From Gonapodya prolifera JEL478 (lineage: Eukaryota; Monoblepharomycota; Monoblepharidomycetes; Monoblepharidales; Gonapodyaceae): a stretch of 64,000 nucleotides of DNA. The translations under genes were made by a program, and so were the position numbers. A model generated the notes under the pieces. It saw nothing but the letters and a program-made list of their open reading frames with translations, had not been told where the DNA came from and did not search any database. The stretch is from the NCBI GenBank assembly GCA_001574975.1, contig KQ965732.1, positions 310,001-374,000 of the forward strand, written 5' to 3'. Below, piece after piece: positions 21,929 through 58,531 of the stretch. Every line of letters begins with the position of its first letter. Positions within the stretch are counted from its first letter, which is position 1.

Positions 21929-24900
21929 ATGTCCGCCGAGCTGACGATTCTCGGTTCGTGATGTCGCACTTCCCGATTCGTCTTCCCCCTGTCTGATTCG
22001 GATCGTCCTCGTCCCGGCCTTCACTGTCAACCCCACCCTGCTTCATTTAGGCACCATCATCGGCCTCGCAAAGGATATTGGACAACTCGCTAGCAATGCT
22101 CAGGTGCGTTTTCCCCCGGCTTGCTTCGTTGGACCGGTTCGGGGGGTAAAATGTGGCCACTCTTTCCTCCTTTTATCGCATCGCCATAAACATCGCTGTT
22201 TGACCCAACCGGAACCAAACCAAACCAAACCTCAAAATCATATACGGTCGACATGCCATGTACTTGCCGCACTGCTCACCGTCTTTGGTGTCCGATGTTA
22301 CAGGCATGCAAGAAGCAATGTGGTCGGCTAGGTGGGGCCCACCGTCGTGATTATTCGAAGAACACACCATCTGACTGCATCTTTTCTTTTCATTGGGGAT
22401 ATTATCGCCTTAATTTGCGGCGCCACCGTCGTATCCCCTTCTCAACCACTGGCATGGCGAACATGTTTCTTTCTACTCCTCTAGCAACTCGATGCCAAGG
22501 CGTCGTCAATCTTCTTGAACCCCTTCGGGGACGGCTTTCCAACCCCAACAGTCCTCCTCCCAACCCGCATCTGCTCGTTAACCTGGAGCAGGTTGAGCGA
22601 GCGCTTCTGCAGTGCCAGGACCAAGTAAAACTATATACAACGCGTAACTGGGCCAAGGAAGTGTTTGTCGACGCTGCAAACCCACAGAGGTTTGAGAAAC
22701 TGAACAGGGATTTAGGAGATGCGGCCGACCAATTGAGCGTGAGTGGATATGCAAGCTGCGAAACTGATTCTTACGGATGTTCTGATCACCAATATGACTT
22801 GTTGCGCACTTCGGAATTGACAATGCTATTGCCTTGCGACTACATCTTCGTCATGTTCGCTTTCAGCTTGGCCCAAGTGTCAGCACCTTATTTAACCGGG
22901 CCGACGACGTTGCCGACCTCACCGCTGACATTGCGGCCATCGGGGACCGACAAGAGGAGATCATTCGTCTTGTTCTCTCGCTGGAAGGACAAGGAGACGC
23001 GACGGAAATGCAACGCCAAATGGCCAACAGTCTCTCATCGTCCAAGGCGTTTTTGCCCAAACCAGACATGCTTGTCAAGGATGCCATGCAGTCACTCGTG
23101 GAGGACTTTATCGTCCCGTGGTCTGAGTTGAAACTTATGAAGCGTCTCGGAGGAGGAGCGTTTGGAGAGGTGCATTTGGCGAAGTGGAGAGGGATCGACG
23201 ACGTCGCTGTCAAGATTCTCAAAAGCTCAACAACGCTGAGCATGAAACGGGAGATTGCGGGACAGCAAGGAGGCGCTTCCTTCGCACCGGGTGGCAAGGA
23301 AGACCAGAAGGCGGTGGAGGAGTTTATGAACGAACTGAAGCTCATGGCGAAGTTGAGACATCCCAACGTTGTTCAGCTGATGGTATGTTCTCTGACTACA
23401 CTGCTACTCGATTTTGATGGAAGGGCTACCACGGATATCGGTGGATGGGTGTGAATTGGGCCGTGAGACAAGGGACCTAATGTCTCCTTTATCCCTTCCT
23501 TTCCAGGCTGTTGTTCTCGAACCTAACCGAAAAGCACTGATTATGGAATATATGCCAGCGGGATCTCTCTTTGATGTCATCGGCAAGAGGTCCCTGTCTT
23601 GGCCCCAGATCATTTCCATCGCCAACGACATCGCGAAGGGCTGCGCATACCTTATTCGAATGGGCGTGTTGCACAGAGATCTTAAGAGCGGGAACGTGAT
23701 GGTTCGAGATGATTTGGTGGGTTATCTATGATTTTTCCAAGCACTCCGGTTCGCTCAAAGCGCAACATATTGCCTGAACAGTCTGCGGCGAAAATCACGG
23801 ATTTCGGTCTGTCGCAAAATCTTCGCTCTCAATCCAAGGACGTTGTCGGATCCATTCGGTGGATCGCCCCAGAACTGTTCTCGTGAGTCGCCACTCTATT
23901 CTCGCCATTGATTACCATCAGGCCTGAGCAGAACGTACAATTTTCGCATTAGATTGACGCCAAATACGGAAAAATCCGACATGTTTGCCTTCGGCATGAT
24001 TCTCTACGAGCTGGTCAGTCGACGCCTTCCCTTCCACGTGAGTGGTGCCTTGCACGAAAAAGTTGCTTCTTGGATCCTTCACCATCTTTTTTTTTTGTGT
24101 GTGTGCGGGGTTTCTACAACAGGAGCTTAACGACGAGCAGGTGGAAAAGGCTTATCGCTCAGGTCAAAGACCTCAGATTCCCCCGGGCGTTCCGCGTGGC
24201 TTTGCGGCCATCATTGAGCATTGCTGGGCACAAGATCCAGCGAAAAGGTGGGTGTTGATAGTACAATAGTAGTTGGGTTGTCCCGGTACCGCTGTCTCCC
24301 AGTGGGACGAGGCCATTTCTTGTATCGAAAAACGAGAATTCCTGATCTAATAACGTCTCATTTCTTTCTAGACCCACGTTTGCGCAAATGATTGAACAAG
24401 GCTGGTTCAACCCTCCAGAAAATCAGCCTGCTTCCCCTTTCCCAAAGGCTGACATGCACATGCGGGGTCCTGTGCCAATCGGCGGTCAATCAGAGCACGG
24501 TCATGCCTCGGCCCCATCGGTTATACCCCCGCCTCGCGCTGGGTCCATGCCCGTGGAAGCGCTGGGTCGAGACTTTGCAAACTTGAGCGTGCACGGCAAT
24601 CCCAATTATCCTGCGCGGGATCCATACGGGAGACCATTATCGTATTACGGAGACTACGGTTCGAATATGGGAAGGTCTAACTCGATGCAGCCCCAGTTGC
24701 GGATTCCACGGAGGGTTGAAAGCAAGGTGTGTATGGCGCTCCTCTCAAGCACAGCTCTCTCTCAACGCCATCCCCTTTGATTCTTGCTTCAGGTGATGGC
24801 TCTCCCTCCGGGAGGCCCCCAACAGATGCCAGGAAGTGCATATCCAACACGACAGATGATGCCTCAAATGCACCCCGCTTCAATGCCCCCGCAGGGTCGA

Positions 24901-24975
24901 GTAGCACCGGCAGCTATGCCACCTTACCCAATGTATAACCCTCAAATGCAACCTCAGCAGCAAATCCGTCGATGA
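21929..24975 (+). CDS. TKL-type protein kinase with MLKL-like N-terminal helical domain (kinase 1)
   Basis: Predicted active Ser/Thr or dual-specificity kinase of the tyrosine-kinase-like group. Exons begin 21929-21953 and 22051-22103, then a 16-base exon 22304-22319, then 22485-22738 and 22867-23382, and continue to 24975, giving 640 residues. Residues 1-155 are helical and line up with the MLKL N-terminal four-helix bundle: ACKKQSTRCQGVVNLLEPL matches its CKKQCRRL helix, followed by RFEKLNRDLGDAADQLS. Residues 210-500 are a kinase domain with LGGGAFGEV, VAVKIL (Lys), HRDLKSGNV, DFGLS and APEL all intact. The tail is Pro/Gln/Met-rich, like a scaffold-binding region. The next gene is a tandem copy. 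The role is unknown. By architecture it could be an upstream kinase in a membrane-damage or stress pathway. Confidence 0.88.
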
Positions 24976-25355
24976 AAAGATGGCTCCTGGGGAACGGGAC
25001 ATTGGCATATTTGAAGTGTTGGATGGATGTTGAGACTGTTTTTTTTTCAACCACAGAGCATTGAGGAAGAGCACGAGGGACAGCAGGCGGTGGGGACGAG
25101 AACTTTACATGTGGAGCAGGATATAATTTGAATTGCATATTCCCCATGATATCTTCTTTCTCTTAATCAATCTTGGGCAGTGGTGTACTGATTGTACAAA
25201 TATAGTTTTCCGGGAGTTTTCCGGGAGGGCGGATCAGTTTGTTGTTTGAGATGGGTTTTGGGTCAAGTGAATTGTGCACCTTCACAGGCCAAGTGGAAGG
25301 GATCCTTGAAAATTCGCCCGAAGTTTCCGCCCGCAGAACCTACCGAACGAGGGAG
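24976..25355. other. Spacer between the tandem kinases
   Basis: Should hold the 3' UTR of kinase 1 and the promoter of kinase 2. No further open frame with support. Confidence 0.4.
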
Positions 25356-27925
25356 ATGGAGCTTTCTATTCTCGGTGCGTGACAGAAGCTTTCCCTTTCG
25401 GAAGCATTCCCCGTCTGGCAATCTCAACCAACTTGGGTTACCGCCACGCACCCTCACCAACAGGATCGGTCAAGCAACGCACTCGGGACATCACGAACCT
25501 CTCTGTGGCAGCACAGGTACGACTTTTTTGACCTTCGTGGACGTTTGGGGGCGTCAGGAATCGTGGTGGCCGCTTTGTCTTACTGAGGTCTTGCCCTTTC
25601 CTTTTCACTCCTTTGGGGAATCAGGCGAATAAGAGACAGTGTGTAAGGCTAGGTATGCCACTTATGGCTTTCTGCGTTCTTCCGATGGTTAAGACGCTTG
25701 CTGTTTCTTGGATCGTCTGGCAACAGCCCAACGCTGTCAGTCCATTGTGACACTGCTGGACCCATTGGCGCAACGGCTATCGTATCCAAATCAATACACG
25801 GACCCTACCCTTGGGAACAATCTGCGTTTTCTGGAAAGGGTTCTCACCGAATGCCAAGATCACATTGGACTGTATGCTTCGAGAAACTGGGCGAAGGCTG
25901 TCTTCACGGATGCTGCTAATCCACAGCAGTTCGACAAACTCAACCGGAGTTTGGCGAGTGCAGCAGATCAGCTCAGTGTAAGTGCTCCCTTTGTGGTGTA
26001 CAAGTGGAACTGTTCTTTTGACCATGTCGGACACCAAATTGTGTGATGCTTCCTGATGGGGCCTCAACGTATTCCTCTACGCTTCGCTACCACAAAACCA
26101 TCATACCATGTTGATTTTCATTTGTGTGCACCGTTCGGTTGGAAATCAGCTCGGAAGCGCTGGAAAGAACCTTTTCAACAAGTCCGACGATGCAACGGAT
26201 CTGAACGCAGATATCGCTTCCATTGGTCAACAGCAGGAGGAAATTATTCGGCAGGTCATGGCGTTTGAGGCAAACCCAGGAACAGGCGACGAGCTTCGCC
26301 GCCAGTTTGCCATGGTGGTTTCCGCATCCAAGGCATTCGTGCCCAAGACTGACTTGATTTCGGAGGCGATGCGAGCTTTGGTGGATGACTTCATTGTTCC
26401 CTGGACAGAACTGAAGCTGCTCAAACGGTTGGGTGGAGGGGCGTTTGGAGAAGTGCACCTGGCCAAGTGGAGAGGAATCGATGATGTTGCGGTCAAAATT
26501 TTAAAATCGAACACCACATTCAGTATGCGACGAGAAATTAACGGGGACGGCACTGCCATACCCAACAACTACAGAGGGATGAGCAAAGAGGACCAAAAAG
26601 CTGTCGAGGAATTTATGAACGAACTTAAGTTGATGGCAAAGTTACGACACCCAAACATTGTGCAGTTGATGGTATGTGATAGCGCGTTGAAGCGTTTGCT
26701 CGAATATCTCACAAAGAAAATTTCTTCAAGGCGGTCGTGTTGGAGCCCAACCGCAAAGCGCTTATTATGGAGTACATGCCCGCTGGATCTTTGTTTGACG
26801 TGATCACGAAGAAGAGTTTGACGTGGCCGCAAATCATCTCCATTGCGAACGATATTGCGAGGGGATGTGCTTACCTCATCAAAATGGGAGTCCTCCACAG
26901 GGATTTGAAAAGTGGAAACGTTATGGTTCGGGATGACTTGGTGAGCAATCTTGATAAATCCTCATCTTGACATCCGCAACTAACGTACGGAAACTATCTG
27001 CATAGTCTGCGGCCAAGATCTGTGACTTCGGTCTCTCTCAGAATCTCAGAGCGAAATCAAAAGATGTTGTCGGATCCATTCGGTGGATTGCGCCAGAACT
27101 TTTCGAGTGTGTAATTCTTTCCAAGAGTTCGCGTCTCTCCATTCATCTTTATCTGTTCGAAGCCTCACCCCAAACACCGAGAAATCAGACGTTTTTGCCT
27201 TCGGAATGATTCTCTACGAACTCGTTAGTCGGCGCCTTCCTTTCCATGTGAGAATCGAAATCTAAGAAAATCGGAGCGGATATACTGACAGTTCCATCGT
27301 TCAACAAGGAATATAACGACGACCAAGTAGAGCAAGCGTACCGTCGTGGCCTTCGACCTGTTATTCCTGAAAAGGTTCCTGCCGGCTTTAAATCTATTAT
27401 CGAGCACTGCTGGCACCAGGATCCATCCAAACGGTAAATATTACAATTCCCTTCAATTTGATGTGGATGGTTCTTTGACCTTGTACCTACCATTTTATCG
27501 TCCTCCTTTCAGTCCTACTTTTGTTCAAATGATTGAGGAAGGATGGTTTGAATCGAACCCCACACCGGCCGCAACCACCCCGGTCCGAGCTCCCACCATG
27601 CAAGGCCGGTACCCGTCGCAGGCAGGTGCTCACAACCAGAGCTGGCCAGGCGCTGGTCCCCAGCAAATGCCAGGGAGGAGGAATGTATCCCAGCCGCCTC
27701 TCAAGATTCCTCCCCGGATGGAGAGTAAGGTGCGTCTACTTGAGGATTATTCACAGCCGTTTTGCTTTCTGTGATACCATCTCCGCCTTTTCATCCCGCT
27801 CTTAGGCGTTGGGAGCGACCCCACAACCTCACATGGCTCCTGGACGTCCAATGCCCCCTCCTAATCAACCCTATTACCCGCCAAACCCACCTCAGCCCCA
27901 GTGGCCGCAGCAACAATATCGATAG
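25356..27925 (+). CDS. TKL-type protein kinase with MLKL-like N-terminal helical domain (kinase 2)
   Basis: Tandem paralogue of kinase 1 with the same exon plan, including a 13-base exon at 25640-25652 where kinase 1 has 16 bases. The start is 25356-25374, then 25464-25516, then the micro-exon, then from 25727 onward. The N-terminal domain reads QRCQSIVTLLDPLAQRL, NWAKAVFTDAANPQQFDKLN, and NLFNKSDDATDLNADIASIG, matching kinase 1 and the MLKL four-helix and brace region. Kinase motifs LGGGAFGEV, VAVKIL, HRDLKSGNV, DFGLS and APELF are intact. The C-terminus is Pro/Gln-rich and ends QWPQQQYR before TAG. Divergence from kinase 1 is greatest in the tail and in the first helix. Predicted to be catalytically active. 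The substrate is unknown. Confidence 0.88.
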
Positions 27926-28133
27926 ATTGGTATAAAAATGCAGGGCGGAGAAGTATTTTGGGAAGGATTGTGTGAATGCTGACAACAGTTTGAATTACGG
28001 ATGGCGATACCCATAGTCACTCCTATCTGTCCGTAATATATCATTTCACCTTTGACGGAATAAGCGAATATAAGTCTCTATTTAAACCCTGTTCAACGGT
28101 CTCTGAAGTCTACTCTTCGAGTACTGAGGAAGT

Positions 28134-29765
28134 TTAACGCTTCCAGAAAAGAATGTCGCCTGCAGGGAAATTAGAGAAGGTAGAAATCGGGTGAATATGG
28201 CACCAGAATCGTACTCACCCTCGTCCTCGACGAATCGGCAACGCTGGAAAATTCTCCAGACACTGGTCACAACTGGGGTGTTGTCGTAGTAGTATTGGCC
28301 AGCAGGTTCCAAGATCTTTTTCAGGTGCTCGGTAGCTTCACCCGCGTTGTAGTGTGGCATTGTGGAGAAGCAGTGGTGAGCGACGTGGGTGTCGGTGCTG
28401 AATTTGGAACATGAGATGTGATTGTTAAAACTCATTCAGTGCGAAGTTTGAAACAAAACACTGACATGCGATGGAACACGTGATTGAGGAGACCAAAGTC
28501 GCGATCGACGGTACACAGCGCGCCTCGGAGAAAGTTCCATTCACCCTCGCGGTAGTGGGGAATTCGGGAGTCACTGTGCTACTCACATAAGGTTTTCAAG
28601 GAGCGGTCAGTTATATGTTTACTCGCAAAAGAGGAGACGCTGATAGCTCACCTGCAAGTATGTAATGGTCACGAGCCAGAAGTTCACCCAGAGGTAGGGC
28701 ACAAAGTAGTATCGGAACACGACATCGAAGCCCTGGTTAGCGCACCAGAACGCCAAAGCTCCGATCGTGATGAAGACCCCAATGTCGGAAAGGATGACTT
28801 TCAGCCATTGTTTGGGCTCGAAAATGGCAGAGCTGGGGTGGAAGTGCGAAGTCCACCTGAATTAAGAGTGATTCGTCAACTCTTTGATGCTCCACCTGTA
28901 CGGCACATTAAGCACCTACCGTCCATAGTCCTGACCAGCCGCATTGTAGATAATGTACGCCGGCCATCCCAAAATCCACATAAGCAGGACACCGAGCAAG
29001 CGACCGAGCGGGCTTCCGCCCAAAAGCGTGTCATCCTCAGCGGGGTAAGCCATGAACTCCTTGTCATTGTTGAAGTACTGGGGCTCCTCAGTAGCGACAG
29101 GCTGGTCCTTTGCGGGAGGAAGGCCGGTTTCTGAACGGGTGTGGGGCACAAACACCTGGTCCTTGGTCATGTGGTTGGTGTGGTGGTGGTGGCGACCGTG
29201 GCTGATTTGCCACGAGAAGTAGGGCACGAGCAGGGCGGAGTGAAGGACCCAGCCGACGATGTTGTCGAGGAGGGCGTAGTCGGAGAAGGCGTGGTGGCCA
29301 CACTCTTTGGTAGTCGCAAATACAATGAAGCTCCGCAAATTATGTCTCGACACACTTCCGGGACTCACCATGTGCAATGACCCATACTCCTGTCAGCACA
29401 CATCCAAGCACGAACTGCCACGCCGCCCACACGGCCCAACGGGCAGGTGCAGGGACACCGTTGGCCACCATCCAGCTGTCCGTTCCCGCCACACTGCCAC
29501 CATCCAAAACGCTGTAAGCGAAGTACCAGAGGGCGCTGGCGATTGCGAGATCTTGCACGACGTAGGAGAACGACGTGATCACCGATCGTTTAAAGCAGTG
29601 TTCCGGAATCGCATCGCGGAGCACTTTGAGGGAGATGCCGTGTGTCTCGGGGAGTGAGAAGTTCCGGGGGACGTGGCCCGAGTATGTGACTTTGTGGGGC
29701 TTGGTGTCCACCGTTGTTTTCTTCGACTCCGCAGTCCTGTTTGTCGCGGAACGTGTTGCCGGCAT
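28134..29765 (-). CDS. Delta-12 (oleate) fatty acid desaturase
   Basis: Membrane di-iron enzyme of the endoplasmic reticulum that inserts the delta-12 double bond into oleoyl chains to make linoleate. The three histidine boxes are intact: HECGHH (spanning the first splice junction), HGRHHHHTNH, and HVAHHCFSTMPHYNA. The protein begins MPATRSATNRTAESKK and then FSLPETHGISLKVLRDAIP, the usual fungal N-terminal pattern. It ends RFVEDEGDILFWKR, also typical. Several hydrophobic spans separate the boxes. The ATG at 29765 is the first in frame after a TAG-bounded leader. Delta-12 versus delta-15 specificity cannot be settled from sequence alone, but the length and boxes favour delta-12. The gene converges on kinase 2, about 210 bases between stops. 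Confidence 0.93.
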
Positions 29766-30035
29766 CTCTACCCTAAAACGATCTAGAAAAAGTAGCAAGA
29801 TAAGTGTGTGAACAGCATTTAGACAAGACATCTTGATACAGAAGGAAACATGAGGGATCCAGTTTGCGAGGGTCCGACCTTAATCCACATTCAATTCTTC
29901 GCCCACAACGCCATCTCGACGTCCTCTCCAAGTGACAAGCGCTCCGGATGGCACCTTGGTGGAGTGCAGCACCGATCCGGTTCTCCAACGATGAAGACGC
30001 ATAGTTTGCATTGAGGACCTCCCACTGAGGACAGC

Positions 30036-30660
30036 TCACCTCACACCGTTGACGATTGACAATCCCCTGCTGCAGTCGCGCGACGCTGAGTCTGGCGTCG
30101 TCCTTCGTTTATTTGACAGGAACGAGACGGGTGAACCTGAGGCTACGGCAAAAAAAGCGGGTTGCCCCAAAAGTTGGCGAAGATTTTTATGCTACACATT
30201 ACAAACAACCCTTTGGACTGCACCGCCGCGATCTCCGACCGGTGGCCGGAACAGCACGAACACGTGCAACGTGCCGCGCTGTTTATTATTGTAAAAATAA
30301 ACAAAAGGGGGGGGGGGGGGGGCGCCGGGCAATCCAATGACCTGACAACAGAATACGGTGGAACCATTAGGACATTGATGCTGGTAACAATGAGAAGAAA
30401 TAAAGAAACTTACCCCGCGAGGGATCCCTGAGATTGACGTACGAGTCGCCAGACTCTTTGGTGTAGTCCCGTGACCTCCTTTCGGGGGTTGCCCGAACTG
30501 GAAGCGTCAAGGATGTCGGCGATTGGGGGGTTGTTGATATGGTTGGTTAAGCAGGGTGGTAGTAGGAGGATAAAGTATCGGCACATGGTGGAAGCAAAAA
30601 GTAACAAGGTTTCAATCAGTTTACAGGTATCGAGGTAGTGAATGGAGAAATTACTCACTT
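30036..30660 (-). CDS. Possible 3' exons of a small unrecognised gene
   Basis: Three minus-strand stretches are open in one phase-consistent reading and bounded by good splice sites. One ends at 30659 before GTGAGT. The second is 30497-30414 (acceptor CTTCCAG, donor GTAAGT) and encodes RATPERRSRDYTKESGDSYV. The last runs from 30136 (acceptor CCTCAG) to a TGA at 30036. The predicted peptide is basic, Ser/Arg-rich and disordered. The intron between the last two contains the poly-G run. The upstream part of the gene is not resolved: another minus-strand open region to about 31290 shows splice-like sites but no confident frame. It may be an upstream non-coding leader of the desaturase gene instead. 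Confidence 0.25.
30307..30322 (+). repeat. Poly-G run of 16
   Basis: Sixteen consecutive G on the + strand, between an A-rich and a GC-rich flank. The length in an assembly is uncertain for homopolymers. Confidence 0.8.
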
Positions 30661-38220: not shown

Positions 38221-38308
38221 GTTGAAAATGTCATATTATAACGGTATCATAAGCATTTCATTCGTATGTACAAATTGATTGAATCTCCCAAAATTGAATT
38301 AGTCCAAA

Positions 38309-46773: not shown

Positions 46774-48618
46774 TCAATCTGTCTTGTCCAGCGCCTCCAG
46801 TCTTTCCACCAGAGGGGGGTGGCTGTAATGATACGTAGAGTACCATTTGTCCGGATTCAAATTCTGCATTTATGAAGGTTTAGTTGGTATTGTCCACCGC
46901 ACCATTGAAGAGATTAAAACTCACTCCCAAGTTTTCAATATGGAGCTTCACCAACGCCCCTCGCAGCTGCTCCCCTTCTCTCAACGACTTTGCGTACGCA
47001 TCCGCTTCGAACTCATTCTTGCGCGAGAGTAAGTTGAGGAGCAGTCCTGCGACGGAGTCCCACGGACCCAACACGAACGAGAAGAGAAGGAACGCGATGA
47101 GTGTGGGGTAACTCGTGGAATTTGTGGGCGCCGGGAAGTTGAACGATGCAAACAGTGGTGGGTGATGTGCGAAGCTTGAGAGAAACGATCGTTCAGTGCG
47201 ACAGACGAAGCCCAAGGGGGGTGCAAAACTCACTGTGAAAACGTGTAGAACACTAAAAACATATTGATTTGTTGTATGGTTAGGAGAACAGGTACTTTAA
47301 CAGGAAAAATGAATCCTTCACGGATGTCTGGATACTAATTACATGACAAGGCTTACCGTGGTTACGCTTCCAGTGGCCAATTTCGTGAGCTATCACGGTA
47401 GGTGAAGTATTGGGGATTCCCGGCAGATGCCCTCGGTAAGCAATCGAATCCCTTCCCACAAACCCAAAGGAAAAACTTCGACGTACCAAGAACCGCTATG
47501 ACTTCTTCCTCATCTGCTTTTTCAACGAGCGTATCGAACAAAACGATCCTTTTGTTGTTACCGAATCCATACATGTAGGCATTTGAGTGGGCACTTCGCC
47601 TACTTCCATCGACAACAAAGACCTTGTCCATTGGGAACGAGGCGCGTTCCGCAAGAGCTCGGATTTTAGCGTGGAGAGATGTGGTGGGCGAGAGTGGGGT
47701 GAGTGTGTTGAAAAGCGGTTGGATGAAGTTGGGGTATATGTGCATCATTGATAATTGAAAGAGGAGCCTGGAAGTGCGTTGGGAGTCGTGGTGGGGAATG
47801 TAGTGATGAAGGTGTGGAGCGAAGCGAGGGAACAACGAGATTGACACTTACAAGAAGCCCCATAAATAGAAGTAAAATTGTCTCCCCGATTTTTGAACGA
47901 TCCATAGAGCCGCTGCAAGTACTGGGCCTCCGAGTCCGGCGGCGAGAAGGAGCGTTTTTACCTGATCGCCAATCCACGTCCCGAAAGTTGATTTGTTGAA
48001 TCCGTGGCGTTTTTCCACGACAAAGGTAGAGTAATAACTAAGCGGCGCGGAAAGGATCTGGTTTGCGATGATGAACGCTCCCGTGAATGCCAACGACGTT
48101 GCGATTTCGGGCACCGCAGCTGGGTCGGCGAAAGGTGAGGAGGTCAAGGCAGTTGTCAGGGCAGGAGTATTATCGCCAAATCGGATGCGAGACACGTAAA
48201 CGAAAACGCGAGAGACGACATGGGCGGATGAGGACCACAGTGCTGGTAGAAGGTCAAAGCCAAGTATGACGGCCGTTTGAAGTTGAGAATACGCAGATGA
48301 TACGAAGAGGAAGAGCGATCTATCGCGCCCGTAGGCTACATAGCAAGAGTTGAGCGTGAAAGAGTGAACGCCAGTAGAAGTGCATCGTTGGGATGTTGCT
48401 CTCACATTGTGATTTGTCAAATGTTTCTTGCGTTACGATCTGACTGAGAGCAGTGGGGACATGCTTCTCGGAGAGCTTCTTGTGTTGTCTGTATTGTATG
48501 TACGTCTATGGTGGATCGGACGTTGGCAATGTTCTAATGTGCAGGATGGACAATCGTGACTCACCTCGAATGAATAAACGAGGAAAGAGAAGCCCAGGAC
48601 AGCGCTTTTGTATGCCAT
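46774..48618 (-). CDS. STE24: CAAX prenyl protease 1 (Ste24/FACE1)
   Basis: Zinc metalloprotease of the endoplasmic reticulum and inner nuclear membrane that trims prenylated CAAX proteins. The first exon starts MAYKSAVLGFSFLVYSFE and splices into YIQYRQHKKLSEKHVPTAL, the family start. Hydrophobic spans follow, then EKRHGFNKSTFGTWIGDQVK. The catalytic motif is VIAHEIGHWKRNHG (HEIGH), followed by SRKNEFEADAYAKSL with the third zinc ligand Glu. The last exon gives NPDKWYSTYHYSHPPLVERL, ending at TGA 46774. All these are diagnostic. Introns are short GT-AG. A yeast homologue acts in a-factor maturation. Here only general CAAX processing can be stated. Confidence 0.95.
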
Positions 48619-49124
48619 CGCGGCGCGTGGACAATCGGCTGATAAACCGCCGAATGTTCACCTCCAGCCCCTCCTTCAGCTTCAGCTTGCCTCGGATTGA
48701 CGTGAGCCAGGTTCATCCGAATAAAATGACCACAATGAAAACAAAAACATATTGCATCTATGAATGTGTTCGAACGTTGACCGTGTTCGAAATTGGTGGG
48801 CTCAACGAAAAATCTCGTTCGCATCAGCACGTAGCCATACATTTGAGTTTTGAGTTGTTGAGATAAGGCGCGCCTGAGCTCACGCCTGAGCTCAAAATTT
48901 TGTCAGCGGCGTTGCTGTATTTTTCGAATCACGTTGGCATGGGGAGCTGGAGACCATGCATTTGGGCGTGAAGATTCCCGTTTGCCACGATTAGCCGAGG
49001 AGTTCAGCCGCAAAACATTTCCAGGCAGCGACGGCGGACGCAGAAGAGCCACAGGCGTAGGACGGATCCCAGCAAGTAAGCGTGTTGAGTCCCAGCGGCC
49101 AGCGGGCGAATCTCGGTTGACCTT
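48619..49124. other. Divergent region between Ste24 and the syntaxin
   Basis: No supported frame. The direct repeat GCGCCTGAGCTCA/ACGCCTGAGCTCA lies at about 48869-48893. It may hold an unresolved first exon of the syntaxin. Confidence 0.4.
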
Positions 49125-50504
49125 GTGTGGCTATCTCCTCGCGATGGCGTTCGCTCTGGCCGTCTGCCCCACTCAGTGTACTCCCCAGCCCTTCGCGGTT
49201 CTCCGACTCCCTCGCGGGCATCCACTCCCTCGGCACGAGCCGCGTCTCCCTTCGCCGTGCCGCAGTCTGCAGACCCACAACCACGACCTTCCTACCACGC
49301 ATTCAAAGACAGAACGAACGAGTTCTTCACGACGGTCGAATCCATCGCTTCACGTTCCTCGAATGGACCGATGGAAACTCACGCCCTGCTCAGAACTTCG
49401 CGGAATGACTCGAATGGAAAGCAACAGCTCTCTGGAGGTCCTCCCAACAGTCAGTCCGCTTTCACCCGGGAGGCGGCGTCCGTTGGCAAGGAAATCAATT
49501 TAACGATGGAAAAACTCTCTCGGCTTGCCAAGCTTGCGAAAAGGCGCACGCTGTTCGACGACCGTCCGGAGGAAATAAACCAGCTCGTGTTTCTGATTAA
49601 ACAGGACATTGCCCGCGTCTCTGGCCGTATTAGCTCGCTTCAACAATCTCTCAATGAAGCCAAACGCCGGGGGCCTTCGCAGTCATCCCGCTCCCCCGCG
49701 TCAACCTCCACACCCGTGCCCTTGGCCGCAAACCGTCACGCCGCGGACCATGCCTCTTCTGTCCTCTTTTCCCTTCAATCTCGATTAGCATCTACGTCTT
49801 CGGAGTTCAAGGACGTTCTCGAGGTCCGAACGCGTAACCTGCGGGAACAAAAGCAGCGGAGAGACCAGTACGGATTCGCTGGTGCGCCGACAGATGGTAC
49901 CGCGGGTGGTGGCCCTGCTGCCCCCGGAAGCGGCACGCTTGGCGGCATCGCACCCCCCGCTCCATCACCCTCTCCTTTCCCCTCCGTCGCGTCTGCCATA
50001 CCCCCATCATCAGACTCTCCTCTTTACCGCTCCTCCCCGCTCGCCGAGTCTGGACTTCTCCACCGGCACAGCTCCGCCTCCGCCCGTGCATCACCCATCC
50101 CAAACGGTGGCTCCCCCACCCCCCGCGACTCCTCTGACCATGTCATTGACATGGGGTCCTCAGGGGCCAACGCCCCGTACACCAGCACGGCGTATGCCCA
50201 ACAGCAACTCCTCGCCCCGGCGTCCAACGCCTACTTGGACTCCCGCCGTGATGCCATCGACTCGATCGAATCCACCATCGCCGAGCTGGGCCAGCTGTAC
50301 CAGCAGTTTGTCCAGGTCCTGGCGGGACAGAGGGACCAGGTGCGCCGGATCGACGAGGACGTGGCTGCGGCGGAGATTAATGTGGACAGGGCCGGCGCGG
50401 AAATCGCGAGGTACTATCAGAATTTGAGGGGGAACAGGATGCTGATGGTACAAGCATTTTTAGTGGTGATGGTGTTTGTCCTGCTGTTTGTGTTGCTGAT
50501 GTGA
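49125..50504 (+). CDS. SED5: Syntaxin-5/Sed5-type Golgi Qa-SNARE (start not resolved)
   Basis: Membrane-fusion SNARE of the ER-Golgi and intra-Golgi steps. The N-terminus contains FKDRTNEFFTTVESI, the Sly1-binding N-peptide of Sed5. A helical Habc region follows (EINLTMEKLSRLAKLAKRRT, DDRPEEINQLVFLIKQDI), then a long Ser/Pro linker. The Qa SNARE motif is RDAIDSIESTIAELGQLYQQ with the central zero-layer Gln in QQFVQV. A C-terminal membrane anchor reads MVQAFLVVMVFVLLFVLLM. The open frame starts at 49125 without an ATG. The true start is probably in an upstream exon, since the N-peptide usually begins within a few residues of Met. The Pro/Ser-rich lead (49180-49270) may be partly intronic. Confidence 0.88.
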   Translation: MWLSPRDGVRSGRLPHSVYSPALRGSPTPSRASTPSARAASPFAVPQSADPQPRPSYHAFKDRTNEFFTTVESIASRSSNGPMETHALLRTSRNDSNGKQQLSGGPPNSQSAFTREAASVGKEINLTMEKLSRLAKLAKRRTLFDDRPEEINQLVFLIKQDIARVSGRISSLQQSLNEAKRRGPSQSSRSPASTSTPVPLAANRHAADHASSVLFSLQSRLASTSSEFKDVLEVRTRNLREQKQRRDQYGFAGAPTDGTAGGGPAAPGSGTLGGIAPPAPSPSPFPSVASAIPPSSDSPLYRSSPLAESGLLHRHSSASARASPIPNGGSPTPRDSSDHVIDMGSSGANAPYTSTAYAQQQLLAPASNAYLDSRRDAIDSIESTIAELGQLYQQFVQVLAGQRDQVRRIDEDVAAAEINVDRAGAEIARYYQNLRGNRMLMVQAFLVVMVFVLLFVLLM

Positions 50505-51025
50505 GAGGATGGCGGTCGGCGCGGTGTGCAGCCGGGCGAAATGGGGACGAAGTGTCCAAGCGTTGTAGAGGGAGTCTGGAATGTGGAATAAGTTATTGCC
50601 GAGCCGATTGTGGCTCCTCGATACCCTTCCAGGAACGGCGAACGCGGTGCTCTTTTCGGTAACTACATTCTTCTCTACCTCTGCCGCGTTGCGTCTAGTC
50701 GGCACCGTAAAGACTTTGACCGAGCATTGAGTGGCAATGGGGGGACGTTGCAGCAGTATTGATACCTCATTTTCTTTGCAATTTTTGAGCCAAATAACGA
50801 TGCTGCTGCTACTCAATATACACTCTCTCACTTGACAAATGGGCGCTTGCTTTAGTGGAATGCTTTGGTAGTTTTCGCAAGTCCGTGGATATGCCTCTTG
50901 CAGCACCTACATTCGAAGAGTCATCAATGTTCCATACGATACAAATAAATCATTATTTCTATGTCTGGTCACAGATATCACCAAAATAGCCTCCCAGTGC
51001 CTCATTTCCGAAGATGATTTACCGT
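50505..51025. other. Convergent 3' flanks
   Basis: Lies between the syntaxin (plus) and the HemG-like gene (minus). A 148-codon minus-strand frame at 50460-50906 starts without ATG and overlaps the syntaxin end. I do not support it. Confidence 0.4.
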
Positions 51026-52533
51026 TCAATCATCCTCCGAAGCCGTGGCAAACAGGTTCCGGCCCTTGGTTGCAAAGAGGTCCTCCCTCGAGGACTTGGC
51101 CTCGTAGTGCTCTTGAGCCTCGACTACGAAGTCCCGGGCGAACTGTGATGGGGATTAGGCGGGGTAACATGAAGTAGACGAGTGTTGTGGGAGGGATGAG
51201 GCCAGATGAATTGAATGGAAAGGGGGGAGTGGGGGTAGGATCATTTGGCGGAAGGAAGAGGTGGTAAAACAACATGTTGACATCGTCACCGGACCAACTC
51301 ACGTCATCGATCTCGTTAAGGTTCGTGTATTCCCTATCACCTTTCTTCGGGTCGCTCGGATCATCACCTGTAAATGACGGACTTTGGAGGTTCACACGGT
51401 GCGGCGCGAAAACGATTGAATTCGACAACGCACCAGCCTTCACGTATTTCGGATTCCACCCCAGATCATCCACGCTCGAGAGCACCTTCTTCACGCGAAT
51501 CTTATCCACCAGGGAGAACTTGCTCCAAGGGATGTGGCCCGGGACCACTGGTCGAGATGTATCCAACCGCTGAAGCCAATCGTTGCGAGGTACTAGAGTG
51601 CTACAAGTCCTTCCTCACCTTTTACAATTCGTGGCTTCAAACCGGTTGCCCGCAGGAAACTCTTGAGCCCTCGGTCGTTCTCCTGGCTGTAGCCCTTCCC
51701 AAGTGGTGACATCGAAATCACTAACAGGGCGTGCGGAATGCTGTTCAATCAACCAAAGGTAGAGTGTCAACATCGCTTAGCATCGCCAAGACGTTCACTC
51801 GTCAGAGGCGGCCCACACGCACTTGTTGATTCTGCTGAGGTTGTGAGACAGGAAGGACGTGATTTTTGAAGACGCACCGTCATTGTTGTAGAAGGGGATT
51901 GCAAGGGCGAGCGCCTTGTAGCGCTTCCAGTTAAAGTCTGCGGGAAGCCCTCCCTCGATGTTGAAAAGCTCAGACGTGCCGTATTCGGGGTGCGAGAGCT
52001 GGAGAAATGATTGTCACTACCCTACTCCTGTTCCCGCTCCCGCGTGGGCAGGGTAAAAACGGTGGAGCGTACCTGGAGACCATCAGCAAGGTGCTTAGCG
52101 AGGCGGACCGTCTAGTAAGTGTCGGGATTGAGTGGCGAGTCCCATGGTTGTATCCAGAGAGAGCGACAGCGTCATGACATTGGCGATGGCATGGTACAGA
52201 TGTTGGTGAGAAAAAGAAGACGGAGAAGAACGAAGATGGGGCGAGGCGCGGGAGGAATGCGGGGAGAATATTACGAAAAGGTCTCCCAAATCCATATGTC
52301 CGCAGGATGATGTATGAAAACTTACCCCTCCAGACTTGGAGGCGTAGATGATGGCGCTAGGGCGCCAGGCGATTCAAGATAACAGAGTTTGGAGGATGTG
52401 GGAAGGGGAGAAAGGGGGCAGTAGCAAGCCGGCCACGAATGAGGGTGCCGAAGAAGGGAGGGAAGGTTGGAAGGAGGCGATGGGCGGTCGACGGAATCGT
52501 GCGAGCTTACACGTGCTCCGGGTTAGACGACAT
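51026..52533 (-). CDS. Flavodoxin-fold protein, HemG-like
   Basis: Probable FMN-binding flavoprotein. Seven exons, 52533-52511, 52356-52326, 52111-52073, 51998-51823, 51740-51626, 51569-51303 and 51142-51026, sum to 768 bases, 255 residues. The N-terminus, VAIIYASKSGGTVRLAKHLA, has the flavodoxin phosphate loop. Next come FNWKRYKALALAIPFYNN and INNIPHALLVISMSP, where bacterial HemG has the strand and RLNSMPSAFYSVNL. Then come SFLRATGLKPRI and VVPGHIPWSKFSLVDKIRVK, which parallel the HemG C-terminal half. HemG is the menaquinone-dependent protoporphyrinogen oxidase of gamma-proteobacteria. An extra 50-60 residues with SPSFTGDDPSDPKKGDRE are inserted before the last helix. Fungi normally use Hem14 for that step, so the true role is open. 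Two donors (GTAAAA and GTGCGT) are only fair, but phase is kept. Confidence 0.68.
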
Positions 52534-52613
52534 GTGAAACGAAGGCGAAATAACGTTTGCGTTCGTTTGGGACTGCGGACAGATCCCTGAGCCGTAGCTG
52601 ATATATTAGAAAT

Positions 52614-53429
52614 CTAATCTACGAACGTCGCCTTCTCATTTGAGCTCTCAATGTTGTAGCATGTTTTTAGCGGCCTCAGTTCGAAATGAGGTGCGGAGCT
52701 CGTTGTCCAGGGAAAGAACGATTGGTATGTATCGTTCTTCGCGAAAAAAATCGGAACGTCGATTACGGTGAGGGGTATTGTCTTGCTGAAAATGGTGCGG
52801 TACAGTGCTAACAATTCTAAAACAAACGACCACCACGTAGGTATGCAAAGTATGCCGCTGTTGACAACAGACTCGAAAGGTCCACCAAAAGGTTCCCCTA
52901 GGGGGTTGAGAGAGTGTGGATAGTCAGCTACAAGCTCGTCAGTCCACGTGCGACCAGTATGACGAACCTGAATGATGCAATACACCCAAATGACAGCGAC
53001 ACCTGGAAGGATGGAAGTTCATGAGATTCGTAGCTCCATTCCGTCACAGCATTTCGACACTGAGACAGGTCGTTTACTTCTCGGTGCTACTCACGCGTTC
53101 CAATCAAGGCCGCTTCCAGAGTCTTGTCGACTTCGGCGAAGTACACCAACGTGCATCCTGCCCCCGACGCGACACCCGCGAAGAGCACCTGCATCCAAGT
53201 CTGTTCTTTACGCGAGCTCGTGAAGTAGATCATGGCCACAACAAACGCATACACGGCCACGGAGCGTAAAATGGCGCCGGTCATATTGTAGTCGCTCCAA
53301 TGCTTAAAATTGTCCAGTACTATATGGTGGAGCGTCGCCTCGGCGATGGTTAGGGGTACTGCATACACGATGGCAGAGAAGGCCTCTGACTCCCTGATCG
53401 CTTCTTCGTTTGGGTCGTGCTCTTCCTCC

Positions 53430-53465
<36 letters not shown>

Positions 53466-53708
53466 GACAACGGAGCATCATCCTCCGAGTCCGAACCTTC
53501 GGCAGCAGTCCCGGGTCGCTGAAACCGAACTTTGTTCAGCTTTGCACCGTTCAAGATGCCGGTTTGGTCTACGATCTGCAACGGTGGGTATTGCAACGAG
53601 TGGACCCACCCATGATTGACACGTGTGAGTACATTGGCAACGTACCTCCTCAATAGTGCTTCTATCCATCTTGCCCTCAGGCGCGCCTCCCTTCCGCTTT
53701 CTCGCCAT
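52614..53708 (-). CDS. Membrane protein with HD repeat, conserved fungal type
   Basis: No firm function. The start MARKRKGGAPEGKMDRSTIEE splices over the intron 53643-53580 into IVDQTGILNGAKLNKVRFQ. An acidic stretch then holds alternating His and Asp (HDHDHDHDHDH). Three or four hydrophobic spans follow (AFSAIVYAVPLTIAEATLHH, ILRSVAVYAFVVAMIYFTSS, MQVLFAGVASGAGCTLVYFA). The second exon begins VAVIWVYCIIQ and stays open to TAG at 52614, though its second half looks less protein-like and could include an intron. The order basic start, acidic linker, helical hairpin ending in a W-V-aromatic motif resembles the fungal DUF7719-type proteins, but this is from memory. The HD repeat could bind metal. 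Confidence 0.6.
53430..53466 (+). repeat. Tandem hexamer (GTGGTC)n
   Basis: Six units of a 6-base repeat, encoding the His-Asp run of the membrane protein on the minus strand. Copy number is likely to vary between strains. Confidence 0.85.
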
Positions 53709-53787
53709 ACCGCGCACCCGACTCCGTTGTATTCGTTGCACCGCAGGGCACCGCTGCTGCGGTCAACCGCTCCTCCCCCCCCAACAC

Positions 53788-55837
53788 ATGTTTTCGATTC
53801 CGTCCACTCGCCTGGCGTCAGCGGCGTCGAAGGTTGGCGCGCGCACTCTGCCGGCGCTCTCTCGTGCGGCTTCGGGTGTCGCGTCGTCCGTGCAGGTGTG
53901 TACTGGTCACGATGCGTGAAGCAGTCCTTTCACAAGTCTTACAACTCCGCCTGTTTCGCACGCATTCAATTGAATCGCTCGCAAATATGTCTGGTAGAGC
54001 CTCAATCGTGCCCTCAAAGATGAGGACCCCGAAATCGCCAACATTGTCGAGCTGGAGAAGCAGAGGCAGCGTGATTCCATTGTCCTGATCCCCTCCGAGG
54101 TGAGCACGGGAGAAACTTGCCAAGTTTATAATTTCTCGTGTAACTCGCACCCTTGAACGTACCCAGAACTTCACGTCCCGCGCTGTTTTCGATACCCTGG
54201 GATCTGTCATGCAGAACAAGTACTCAGAAGGGTACCCGGGAGCCCGCTACTACGGTGGAAACGAGTACATTGATGCGGCTGAATCCTTGTGCCAGAAGCG
54301 TGCCCTCGAAACGTTCCGGTTGGACCCGGAACGGTGGGGAGTGAACGTTCAACCCTTGTCCGGCGCACCGGCGAATCTGTACGTGTACTATGGAGTCGTT
54401 GGACCAGGAGGGAGGATTATGGGCCTTGACCTTCCCCACGGCGGACAGTGAGTGACGTTGTCGAACCACATATAGATTGGTATCTTTTCCACCAACCCGC
54501 ACTCCAGCCTTTCGCACGGGTATCAAACGGACACTAAGAAAATCTCTGCGATCTCGGCTTACTTTGAGCAAATGCCGTACCGTTGCGACGAACGGACGGG
54601 ACTGGTGGACTACGACGCCCTTGAGAAAACATCCCGCCTCTTCCGCCCCAAGCTCATCGTCGCGGGTGGTTCGGCCTACGCGCGCAACTGGGACTACGAA
54701 CGGCTCAGGAAAATCGCGGACGGGTGCGGTGCCGTGCTGATGGTGGACATGGCCCACATCAGTGGTGAGTCCACGCATGTCAGAGCAGTTTTTGGGCGAA
54801 ATTGTCTTACAATATTCAATCTGATTACCACGCGCACGCTTAAAGGCCTCGTCGCCGCCTCTGTCCTTCCCGACCCATTCCCGCACGCCGACGTTGTCAC
54901 CACCACGACACACAAATCGCTCCGCGGTCCCCGCGGCGCCATGATCTTTTTCCGCCGGGGTGTCAAGAACCTCGATAAGAAGGGTCAACCCGTCCTGTAC
55001 GACTTCCAGGACCGCATCAACGCCTCCGTGTTCCCGGGCCACCAGGGGGGTCCTCACAACCACACCATCACGGCCCTTGCGGTCGCCCTGAAGCAGGCCC
55101 AGGGCGAGGCATTTAAAGAGTACGGGAAGCAGGTGCTGAGAAACGCCAAAAGGATGGAAGAAGTTTTTGGGAAAATGGGGTACACAATGACTTCGGGTGG
55201 CACCGACACGCATCTTTTGTTGCTCGACTTGCGAGACAAAGTGAGTAGCATGTGGTTGACGCTCCTCAATAGATCCGGTGTATAGCAGAGGACGCCAGTG
55301 GTCGTATTATGTTGGGCATCCTAACCCGATCCCTACATATAGAAAATTGACGGTGCTCGTGTTGAGCGCATTCTCGAACTGGCCAAGATCGCTGCCAACA
55401 AGAACACAGTGCCCGGCGACAAGAGCGCCCTGATTCCCGGAGGGCTGCGGATGGGTGAGATCTCACCTCGGGACCATGTTTGTCACATGCGTTCCTTACT
55501 CATTCCATCTTGCAATGCCGACCCCAGGCTCTCCTGCAATGACGTCCCGCGGGTTGATGGAGGATGACTTCACCCAGATCTGCGAGTTCGTCGACCGCGC
55601 TATCAAGGTGACCGTCGAGTTTAACTCTGGTGTTGCTGGTTAGTACATCCGTACTGCAATCAAATTGTGTTGGACGTGGGATCTCATACCTTTTCTTCAT
55701 GGCCGCAACGTGCAGGTTCCAAGCTCAAAGACTTCAAAGAGGCCCTTGGCGATGGTGCACAGCTGTCCCAGCTGGGAGGTCTTAGGGACGAGGTTGTGTC
55801 GTTTGCGAGGAAGTTTCCTACTGTTGGGTGGCAATGA
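53788..55837 (+). CDS. SHM1: Serine hydroxymethyltransferase, mitochondrial
   Basis: PLP enzyme converting serine and tetrahydrofolate to glycine and methylene-tetrahydrofolate. The N-terminus [20 protein letters not shown] is basic, lacks acidic residues and looks like a mitochondrial targeting peptide. Then follow [89 protein letters not shown], and the PLP-lysine motif [20 protein letters not shown] (Lys). The C-terminus has [15 protein letters not shown] and ends [11 protein letters not shown]. About eight exons. The start ATG at 53788 is the first after a pyrimidine-rich leader, divergent from the membrane-protein gene with about 80 bases between starts. Confidence 0.96.
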
Positions 55838-55996
55838 CGAAAAATAAATGTTGATTATACGGCGAAGAAATGACCACTTGGTCACCAAGGGTGGGGGCGA
55901 AAATACCGAATTATGTTGAAATCCCTCGGGTTAGGGGTTTTCGTTGCTCCAGATGTGAGGAGCGGGTGAGGCCACAACTGGTCAACACAATCGACG

Positions 55997-58531
55997 ATGC
56001 TCGCATCCCAAGCCCGCGATGGGACGCCGCCGAAGAAATTCTTGGAGAAGGCCCTCCCTGTTGTTCAGACGGGCTTGGAGGTAACGATCGCAGGGATGGG
56101 CATCGCCCAAATGTTTCTGCCTCCACTTGTGGCGGTCACACAGGTTCTCAGCGCGGTGAACCAATTTTTGCAAAAGGTGGAGTCCCGCAAATGCATGCAT
56201 TGATTGTCCAAGGATTGCTCCCTGACCGTGGTTCGCTCCTAGGTCGAAGTCAACACAACGAACAGGGCATCCCTGAGAAATCTTATTAAAGGCTGCGAGA
56301 ATCTTTCCAACCAGCTTGCGGATTGTGCTGTCAGACTGTCCCAAGATGGGGCGGATGCGCAGCTTAAAGTTGAGCTGAAGCAGCGCCTGGATACACTTGC
56401 TGCGTGAGTCGTTTATCCGTTGAGGTTTCGTTGGTTCCAGAAGTCTGTCGATGTCACATTTGGATTATTCTTGTTGTCTATTCGGAAAAATGGCGTGAAC
56501 CACAAAATTCAAAGCTAATCTCGATTGCACAGCTTCTTAGAGAAAATCCGTAATGCCCTGCGGTTGGATGACTCGATCGTGAGCGCCACCAAACAATGGG
56601 ACAGACTCGCGAAACCGATCGTTGCCCTGACGTGGTTCAAAGAAACCAATAACGCATATGCGATCGACAAGAAGATTCGAGGTTTTTGGGAAGAGTATCG
56701 TCAGATGATGCTGGATGTCACAACCGTGACAGGAGTAAGTGTCAGCTCAACAGCGAACGCATTATTTGCAATTGACAAACGTTTCTAACCATTGTATCTC
56801 CGCCAAAAGCTGTTCACAACTGCAAAAGTAACGGAGCTCAATGTTTTTTTGCGGGAGTTGGAAGAATCCCAAGCGGCGGCGTGGGAACAAGTCAGTGCTG
56901 AGCTCGCCAAAATCCACAAGAACAGCGATGAATTGCTGAAGCAAACGGCTGTTATCGTACAAGAAGAAGGAAAGCAGACTGAAATGCTCAGTTACATCAT
57001 CAATCGCTTGGAGGAACAGGAGTCCCATCGAGCTGCGAAGAGGGAGGGAACCAGTTCGGGGCGAAGTGACATGAGACTGAACACTGGTAGTAGAGCAAAC
57101 TCACAAGATTCAGACACTTTTGTGGTTGATGCGATGGACGATGCTGTCGAAGGCATACCTCGAAGTGTATTTGTCAACGGTGAGCAAGAACAGAACCTAT
57201 ATCAAACAGGCTAATTACCTTTGGGCGCTTTTTGTTTGAATCTGCAGCGCTCTACCTCATCGATTTTAAGCACTGTTCCTTCGTGGCAAAGGACGTGAGG
57301 GACGCACCACAAGCACTTCAAGCGTCGTCAGCACGAAGGTGGCAGGCTGTGCTCGGGCGCTGGCAGGGAATTGATATCATGGTTAAGTTGACACAACCTG
57401 ATGCTCTAAACGAGAAGGCGGAGGAGGAGAGGCAGGAAAGTGCAGTTCTCGTAAGTTTCTAATCGTTGTTCGTTTCGCGCATGGAATAGGAGACTAATGT
57501 ACGCTTGTTCTTCACTTCGCAGACATCGTTTAATGAGCTTTATATCTGGTCTATGCTTCATCATCCTTGCATACACCGCCTCTATGGTATCGGAACTATT
57601 CCAGGGACATCCATCAGCTTTGCTGCAGCTGAAGTAATAAATTTTGATCTCATGAGTTATTTGGAGAAGCATCCAGATCTGACACTGGTACAGAAAGTTC
57701 GCTTGGTATTTATGCTGTGATTGAATTGAAAGTCTCTTCGAGGTGCTTACCTCTTGGCTCTTCCCCTGCAGATGACTGATGTTGCTCGAGGGATGAAACT
57801 GTTGCACGACAAGGAGTTTGTTCACACAAACCTCAAACCGAAAAACATTCTCGTTTCAGACAACGGCAACGCCATGATTTCGGACTTTTCTCTAGCGAGG
57901 CCGTTCTCAGAGGCTGCAGACCTTAGTGCGGAAGATGGGAGTCGTTTGCTTTCTCTTGCCTATACTTCCCCTGAACGAATCGAGCAATGGAAGTCAGTCA
58001 AGGGTCTATGTTCGAGTTCAGACATGAGAAGTGGAATATTTCCTTCTGACGATGTGTTTTCATTTGGAATCGTGTGCGCAGCCGTGAGTGAGATCTTGTG
58101 AAATGTGATTTGCTCGACGCGACCATGTTAATTATCTTATTGCACACCAGATTTGGCTGCCCAAGCAGGACCCTCCTCCTCTAGAAAGTAACCCTTCATA
58201 CCCTGACCCTCCGTACCCTCATGAGTTTGATTATGACGTGGCCATCGATATATGCGATTACAATTACCGTCCTGACACGCCAAAAGGAGATGCGAACGAA
58301 TTGAAGGATATGCCGAAATTGCTACTTGACCTTATCCGAAAATGTTGGGCTAAAGAGACCGAAGAGACGTGCCGACCTACCTTTGCCGCAATAGTGGAGA
58401 GCTTGGAGGCGATACTTGGAGTTCTCGAATATGGGAAGGCCCGAGAACGCAGCAATAAGGCAGAAAAGAATCAAAAGGAGAAGGAACTTGAAAAATTTAT
58501 CGGCTTTCTTCGAAAGGAAATCGTTTCATAG
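55997..58531 (+). CDS. MLKL-like protein: four-helix bundle, coiled coil and pseudokinase
   Basis: Not an active kinase by sequence. Residues 1-55 have a hydrophobic helix (VTIAGMGIAQMFLPPLVAVT). Residues 55-200 are helical with NRASLRNLIKGCENLSNQLA, FLEKIRNALRL and NAYAIDKKIRGFWEEYRQMM, the pattern of MLKL N-terminal and brace domains. A coiled-coil/linker follows, then from about residue 310 a kinase-like domain. It has a Lys in IDIMVKL, HTNLKPKN in place of HRDxKxxN (catalytic Asp replaced by Asn), and SDFSLARP in place of DFG. No glycine loop is evident. The C-lobe (DDVFSFGIVCAA, ELKDMPKLLLDLIRKCWAKE, RPTFAAIVESL) is intact, so it is a pseudokinase. About nine exons. Architecture matches animal MLKL, an effector of necroptosis. 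Function here is inferred. Confidence 0.82.

What the first reader, a model, noticed from the sequence alone, without database searches (positions are those of the whole stretch)
21929..58531. A kinase/pseudokinase set with MLKL-type domains in one 37-kb stretch
Two tandem TKL kinases (21929-27925) have an N-terminal helical domain that lines up with the MLKL killer domain, down to a KKQ..RC helix, and intact catalytic motifs. A third gene (55997-58531) has the helical bundle, brace and a kinase domain with HRD changed to HTN and DFG to DFS. In animals the active kinase RIPK3 drives the pseudokinase MLKL to break membranes. The architecture suggests a fungal cell-death or stress system of the same logic. 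The 28-kb distance means it is not an operon-like unit, so the functional link is inference.
Basis: partly seen in the sequence, partly recalled or inferred. Interest (0 to 1): 0.8.

Follow-up and report, generated by a model that had tools for sequence, protein, structure and literature searches.

The report
Fungal MLKL-domain kinases plus separate pseudokinase
A fungus carries two neighbouring, apparently active kinases fused to the cell-killing helical domain of the animal death protein MLKL, and 28 kb away a dead kinase of another family; the parts are real, but nothing shows that they work together as an animal-style death switch.

Summary
All three genes are real. K1 (644 aa) and K2 (576 aa) are 63% identical tandem copies; both match Pfam MLKL_N (E 9.4e-16, 7.1e-11), K1 also matches solved MLKL chains, and their kinase motifs are intact. 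K3 (663 aa) is a pseudokinase (HRD to HTN, DFG to DFS, glycine loop lost); two paralogs elsewhere in the genome share HTN and DFS.

The RIPK3-to-MLKL reading is not supported. The demonstrable MLKL domain sits on the active kinases. K3's helical N-domain shows no clear MLKL homology. The two kinase families form separate clades. The 7 of 19 intervening ORFs that Pfam recognises look like housekeeping. Chance linkage is about 0.7%, before allowing for post-hoc choice.

Closest known to K1/K2 is plant Pm13: MLKL_NTD, brace, predicted-active kinase (passages, PMC10951266). A 2025 review already notes fungal HELL-kinase/pseudokinase fusions. Best reading: K1/K2 and a third paralog are fungal Pm13-type kinases; K3 belongs to a separate pseudokinase family. 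Any functional link is untested.

The parts
21929..24975 (+). K1 gene: 11 coding exons, 644 aa; MLKL_N domain + linker (brace position) + TKL kinase with intact motifs + Pro-rich tail
   Evidence: spliced model, GT-AG, open frame; Pfam; tail composition
21929..22738 (+). K1 MLKL_N four-helix-bundle domain (residues 1-120, exons 1-4)
   Evidence: PF22215 E 9.4e-16, residues 8-121; MLKL chains 6d74, 2msv E 4e-5; exon-4 AF2 model gives helices 2-17, 27-42, 53-63, 66-83 at pLDDT 63
23116..24408 (+). K1 kinase domain (residues about 204-478), HRD starting at 23672, catalytic motifs present
   Evidence: PF07714 1.8e-59; motif list; best solved chains are CTR1, with tyrosine kinases, MLT/ZAK and TAK1 further down
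25356..27925 (+). K2 gene: 11 coding exons, 576 aa; same architecture, tandem duplicate of K1
   Evidence: 63% identity; same ten intron phases
25356..25977 (+). K2 MLKL_N domain (residues 1-117, exons 1-4)
   Evidence: PF22215 E 7.1e-11, residues 16-118
26399..27549 (+). K2 kinase domain, HRD starting at 26896, catalytic motifs present
   Evidence: PF07714 2.3e-60
55997..58531 (+). K3 gene: 8 coding exons, 663 aa; helical N-domain + helical linker + pseudokinase
55997..56734 (+). K3 helical N-domain (exons 1-3); no significant family match
   Evidence: negative or weak; K2-K3 pair, 8 of 2000 shuffles; helices only, pLDDT 49, introns read through
56810..57179 (+). K3 linker (brace-like position), exon 4
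   Evidence: sequence; alignment with two paralogs
57248..58531 (+). K3 pseudokinase domain: beta3 Lys kept, glycine loop lost, HTN at 57823-57831, DFS at 57883-57891
   Evidence: PF07714 1.8e-26

Best explanation
Two separate things lie in this stretch. (1) K1 and K2 (with a third paralog on another contig) are MLKL-domain protein kinases: an N-terminal MLKL four-helix domain, a linker and an apparently active TKL kinase in one chain, the layout of plant Pm13. Proposed mechanism: the kinase domain holds the helical domain in check; an upstream signal clusters the protein, the kinase phosphorylates itself or its neighbours, and the helical domain is freed to oligomerise on membranes, causing regulated cell death or membrane-based stress signalling. 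Shown: domains and intact motifs. Inferred: activity, autoinhibition, membrane action. (2) K3 is one of three paralogous pseudokinases with a helical N-domain and linker, from another clade of this genome's TKL-like kinases; it may act as a non-enzymatic switch or executioner. No functional link between (1) and (2) is shown.
For: MLKL_N above cut-off in K1 and K2, and E 5.4e-5 but below cut-off (23.2 bits against 27) in the C7 paralog. MLKL chains are the only PDB hits of the K1 N-domain below E 0.1. K1 against the human MLKL stretch scores 97, reached by 0 of 2000 shuffles that keep the hydrophobic pattern; K2 scores 59, reached by 1 of 2000. Catalytic motifs intact. Kinase domain best kept between K1 and K2: 84% identity against 58% in the 4HB, 54% in the linker, 43% in the tail. 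K3, C16 and C131 share HTN and DFS and form one clade (100/98); K1, K2 and C7 form another (95/90). The same N-domain precedes these three pseudokinases, and two searches at E<=10 found it at no other place. Pm13 gives the precedent for MLKL_NTD + brace + kinase with all key residues.
Against: No activity, membrane or death data for any of the three. The Pm13 paper itself says that it is still to be tested whether Pm13's MLKL_NTD regulates cell death or senses effectors. The K1 exon-4 model finds MLKL only at insignificant E-values (6zvo rank 2, E 1.9; 4btf rank 7, E 2.5). The K1 kinase's solved relatives fit ordinary signalling too. None of K2's three most hydrophobic 18-mers within residues 1-120 lies at the N-terminus, which fits membrane insertion poorly. 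The tree rests on 74 columns, is rooted at the midpoint, and the branch that parts the two families is 92/91, just under the program's mark.
Confidence: 0.6

Rival explanations
1. A fungal necroptosis-like pair: active K1/K2 phosphorylate pseudokinase K3, whose N-terminal helices then break membranes.
For: K3 has helical N-domain, linker and pseudokinase, the MLKL order; its activation segment holds several Ser/Thr; K2-K3 N-domain alignment reached by only 8 of 2000 shuffles in each of two tests and 0 of 300 in each of two; chance linkage about 0.7%.
Against: The other five cross pairs are not significant (145 to 1269 of 2000 shuffles reach them), K2 against the reversed K3 domain still scores 46 against 57, and profile tests are negative. 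Separate kinase clades. The two other K3-family members (C16, C131) and the third MLKL_N kinase (C7) are on separate contigs. No RHIM-like core by a simple pattern. No MLKL chain among the 60 shown of 624 PDB hits of the K3 kinase domain.
Confidence: 0.07
2. K1/K2 are ordinary MAP3K-like signalling kinases in which the MLKL-type bundle serves only for oligomerisation or membrane docking, not killing.
For: Solved relatives of the K1 kinase include CTR1, MLT/ZAK and TAK1; recognised neighbours are housekeeping; K2's N-terminal helix is weakly hydrophobic.
Against: [quoted passage not shown]).
Confidence: 0.3
3. The K3 family is on its own a set of fungal MLKL-like executioner pseudokinases, fired by other kinases or receptors, unrelated to K1/K2.
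For: Three paralogs keep the same helical domain, linker and doubly altered pseudokinase; the most hydrophobic 18-mers of the first 120 residues lie at residues 29-48; weak SesA matches in two of three (E 0.03, 0.037).
Against: The same two proteins match Dynactin_p22 better than SesA (E 0.012, 0.0016); no MLKL_N match; low-confidence model.
Confidence: 0.2

Closest known systems
Pm13 and other plant MLKL_NTD-kinase proteins (PMC10951266; passages read)
   Same: N-terminal MLKL_NTD, brace, C-terminal kinase with all key catalytic residues, as K1/K2
   Different: plant; confers mildew resistance; K1/K2 have a Pro-rich tail and their function is unknown
Animal MLKL
   Same: K1/K2 share the 4HB family; K3 shares the order helical domain, linker, pseudokinase
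   Different: MLKL's 4HB is on a pseudokinase; K1/K2 kinases look active; K3's N-domain has no demonstrated homology
Fungal HeLo / HELL / BaMLKL domains (HET-S, HELLP, NLR N-termini; PMC9815663, PMC12881547, passages read)
   Same: MLKL-related helical bundles in fungi; the review states that some HELL domains are in proteins with a kinase/pseudokinase domain
   Different: those treated in the passages read are mostly on NLRs or on effectors under amyloid control
Fungal TKL expansions (Laccaria, PMC2838846; FslK, PMC3937382; passages read)
   Same: this genome too has many TKL-like kinases (144 exon-wise PF07714 matches), and the K3 family groups with some of them
   Different: the passages read describe no HTN/DFS pseudokinase family with a helical N-domain; kinship to those fungal families was not tested

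Membership tests
MLKL_NTD-kinase proteins (Pm13 type): K1, K2 | N-terminal MLKL_N domain | tested here: met
   PF22215 above cut-off in both
MLKL_NTD-kinase proteins (Pm13 type): K1, K2 | kinase domain with the key catalytic residues | tested here: met
MLKL_NTD-kinase proteins (Pm13 type): K1, K2 | helical brace between the two | tested here: inconclusive
   about 80 residues between the domains, 54% identical between K1 and K2; structure not predicted
MLKL (executioner pseudokinase): K1, K2 | catalytically dead kinase domain | tested here: not met
   HRD and DFG intact
MLKL (executioner pseudokinase): K3 | pseudokinase with lost catalytic motifs | tested here: met
   HTN, DFS, no glycine loop
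MLKL (executioner pseudokinase): K3 | 4HB/HeLo domain homologous to MLKL | tested here: inconclusive
   no MLKL_N hit, profile tests negative, 1 of 6 cross pairs borderline
MLKL (executioner pseudokinase): K3 | membrane permeabilisation on phosphorylation by an upstream kinase | not testable with these tools
   needs wet work
RIPK3-like kinase: K1, K2 | RHIM in the tail | tested here: not met
   no RHIM-like core in K1, K2 or K3 by one four-residue pattern, a crude test

The most novel reading that the evidence does not exclude
The genome holds a fungal counterpart of necroptosis built from two families, MLKL-domain active kinases (K1, K2, C7) and a three-member HTN/DFS pseudokinase family whose N-terminal bundle is a diverged MLKL/HeLo domain, with the former driving the latter.
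Probability: 0.06. Interest if true: 0.85.

Novelty: new member of a known kind. Interest (0 to 1): 0.42.

Why it matters
If K1/K2 act as death kinases, the MLKL-domain-plus-active-kinase design known from cereal immunity would also operate in fungi, making the origin of MLKL-type death signalling testable in a genetically simple host. The K3 family gives a defined set of fungal pseudokinases that share the loss of the catalytic motifs, to be tested as non-enzymatic switches.

Tried and rejected
Sequence search of the K3 N-domain against the PDB with one sequence (two chance hits, E 0.76-0.77) and with a three-paralog profile (three hits at E 0.02-0.24, haemagglutinin and a GCN4 chimera). hhalign of the two families (probability 0.31%). 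Profile of K1, K2 and a human MLKL stretch against K3, C16 and C131: reached by 317, 295 and 486 of 2000 residue shuffles and by 511, 682 and 664 of 2000 block shuffles. Pairwise scores in the same call, nine pairs: K2-K3 reached by 0 of 300 in both shuffles; the next lowest count is 18 of 300 (K1-K3, blocks). AlphaFold of K3 with its first two introns read through: pLDDT 48.9; its fold search had 319 matches, none at E<=0.001, no MLKL in the 50 listed; treated as no evidence. AlphaFold of K1 exon 4 with K2 as the only other row: pLDDT 62.9; of 121 matches, 50 listed, MLKL at ranks 2 and 7 and plant NRG1.1 CC-R at rank 13, all insignificant. SesA as the identity of K3's N-domain: rejected because Dynactin_p22 scores better in the same two proteins. 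dN/dS of K1 versus K2: synonymous sites saturated in all four regions. My motif survey (23 catalytic loops, 3 with N for D) used a pattern that missed at least two further pseudokinase units, seen later by eye. The tree used 18 of those 23 loops plus K1 and C7; L034, L040, L059, L060 and L081 were left out; calling L008 and L070 an outgroup was my own judgement. No fungal relatives are held, so synteny could not be tested. The own-genome search for PF22215 found only K1 and K2 exon 4 (one of 14 control genomes also rang, below cut-off), but exon-by-exon matching undercounts, as the C7 paralog shows.
Full report
What is there. Splicing by GT-AG and frame gives three intact genes: K1 21929-24975 (11 exons, 644 aa), K2 25356-27925 (11 exons, 576 aa) and K3 55997-58531 (8 exons, 663 aa). 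K1 and K2 share all ten intron phases and are identical at 375 of 599 aligned columns (63%), so they are an old tandem duplication; synonymous sites are saturated. The kinase domain is the best kept part (84% identity over 275 codons), then the N-domain (58% over 118), the linker (54% over 81) and the tail (43% over 98).

K1/K2 N-domain. Pfam's MLKL_N model matches K1 residues 8-121 (E 9.4e-16) and K2 residues 16-118 (E 7.1e-11), both above the curated cut-off. Against the PDB sequences the K1 N-domain's seven best of 13 hits are MLKL chains (E 3.8e-5 to 0.0019); the next is at 0.14. K1 against the human MLKL stretch scores 97 and none of 2000 shuffles that keep the hydrophobic pattern reaches it; K2 scores 59, reached by 1 of 2000. 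A model of K1 exon 4 alone shows helices 2-17, 27-42, 53-63 and 66-83 at pLDDT 62.9; its fold search puts MLKL chains at ranks 2 and 7 without significance.

K1/K2 kinase. Glycine loop, beta3 lysine, HRD, DFG and APE are present in both. The best solved chains for K1 are CTR1; tyrosine kinases, MLT/ZAK and TAK1 fill most of the rest of the 60 shown of 1077. A third member lies on contig C7 (757107-758590, minus strand): intact HRD/DFG and MLKL_N at 5.4e-5, 23.2 bits, below the cut-off of 27.

K3. Its kinase domain is recognised (PF07714 E 1.8e-26), but HRD is HTN and DFG is DFS, and the glycine loop is gone while the beta3 lysine stays. No MLKL chain is among the 60 shown of 624 PDB hits of this domain. 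Two paralogs on C16 and C131, 49% and 46% identical in the best kinase stretches, carry the same HTN and DFS and the same helical N-domain and linker (29% and 27% identity to K3). Searches with the K3 and the C131 N-domain at E<=10 found this domain at these three places only (7 and 6 matches); they work exon by exon and may miss distant copies. In a tree of 20 catalytic cores (74 columns) the three form one clade (100/98) and K1, K2 and C7 another (95/90); the branch that parts the two families is 92/91, just under the program's mark, and the root is the midpoint. A shared double loss in a retained family points to a pseudokinase role rather than a decaying gene. A caution: in a motif survey of fetched loci 3 of 23 catalytic loops had N for D, the three of this family, but the pattern missed further pseudokinase units next to intact kinases at C135 and C34, so pseudokinases are not special to the K3 family in this genome.

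Is K3's N-domain MLKL-like? Not shown. No MLKL_N match, no meaningful PDB match, hhalign negative, and a profile of K1, K2 and human MLKL scores K3, C16 and C131 no better than shuffles. SesA matches in K3 and C16 (E 0.03 and 0.037) are in the same register, but Dynactin_p22 matches the same two better (0.012, 0.0016), and C131 matches neither. Of six K1/K2-by-K3/C16/C131 pairs only K2-K3 stands out (57; 8 of 2000 in each of two shuffles; reversed K3 scores 46), about 0.02 after correction for six pairs and 0.04 for the nine. The alignment runs collinearly from the second helix into the linker, so a distant relation stays possible. The low-confidence model (pLDDT 48.9) shows only that the region is helical.

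Are the three linked? The distance from K2 to K3 is 28,071 bp. With three K3-type and two K1-type loci in 47.56 Mb the chance that at least one pair lies so close is 0.7%, before allowing for the fact that the stretch was picked because both were in it. I scanned 30 of the 80 ORFs with Pfam; 19 of the 30 lie between K2 and K3. Seven of those 19 match: DUF3474 (below cut-off; a desaturase-associated domain, from recall), a lysine methyltransferase (just above cut-off), a class I tRNA synthetase, DUF5915, a CAAX protease N-domain, a SNARE and serine hydroxymethyltransferase. None of the seven is an NLR or death domain; the other 12 of 19 had no match, so an unrecognised partner there is not excluded. 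The other family members sit on separate contigs. Synteny in relatives could not be tested.

How it most likely works. K1/K2: MLKL-type helical domain and apparently active kinase in one chain. This is the layout of Pm13 in a wild wheat relative, where mutants in MLKL_NTD, brace and kinase lost resistance; [quoted passage not shown] By analogy, clustering and autophosphorylation would release the helical domain towards membranes. That is inference. K3 would be a non-enzymatic switch or executioner of its own.

Novelty. [quoted passage not shown] PMC9815663 (passages read) counts about 600 basidiomycete MLKL-like sequences at NLR N-termini; PMC8778642 (passages read) reports MLKL-family homologs in Glomeromycotina; PMC11476962 (passages read) names a fungal MLKL from Basidiobolus. 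In seven searches of the open-access library (listings) I saw no title or abstract start on this pair or on an HTN/DFS pseudokinase family; subscription papers are not covered. I therefore call it a new member of a known kind, with the K3 family as the less familiar part.

Noticed in passing
L078 (contig C135) and L080 (contig C34), reverse strand: A pseudokinase unit (HCN or HTN, SSFG in place of DFG) lies just upstream of an intact TKL kinase unit, a JAK-like tandem arrangement.
   Followed up: partly
L081 (contig C41), L079 (contig C3), L077 (contig C82): TKL kinases followed by stretches that look by eye like Sel1-type repeats; PMC8778642 mentions Sel1 repeats in MLKL-family homologs of Glomeromycotina.
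   Followed up: no
window 60577-62781 +: One 734-aa open frame with a tubulin-tyrosine-ligase SET-like domain (2.3e-12) and a small methyltransferase domain (3.4e-6).
   Followed up: no
window 47848-48432 - and 49089-50504 +: A CAAX prenyl protease N-domain (2.2e-38) next to a SNARE protein (4.8e-10), ordinary genes between the two kinase loci.
   Followed up: no
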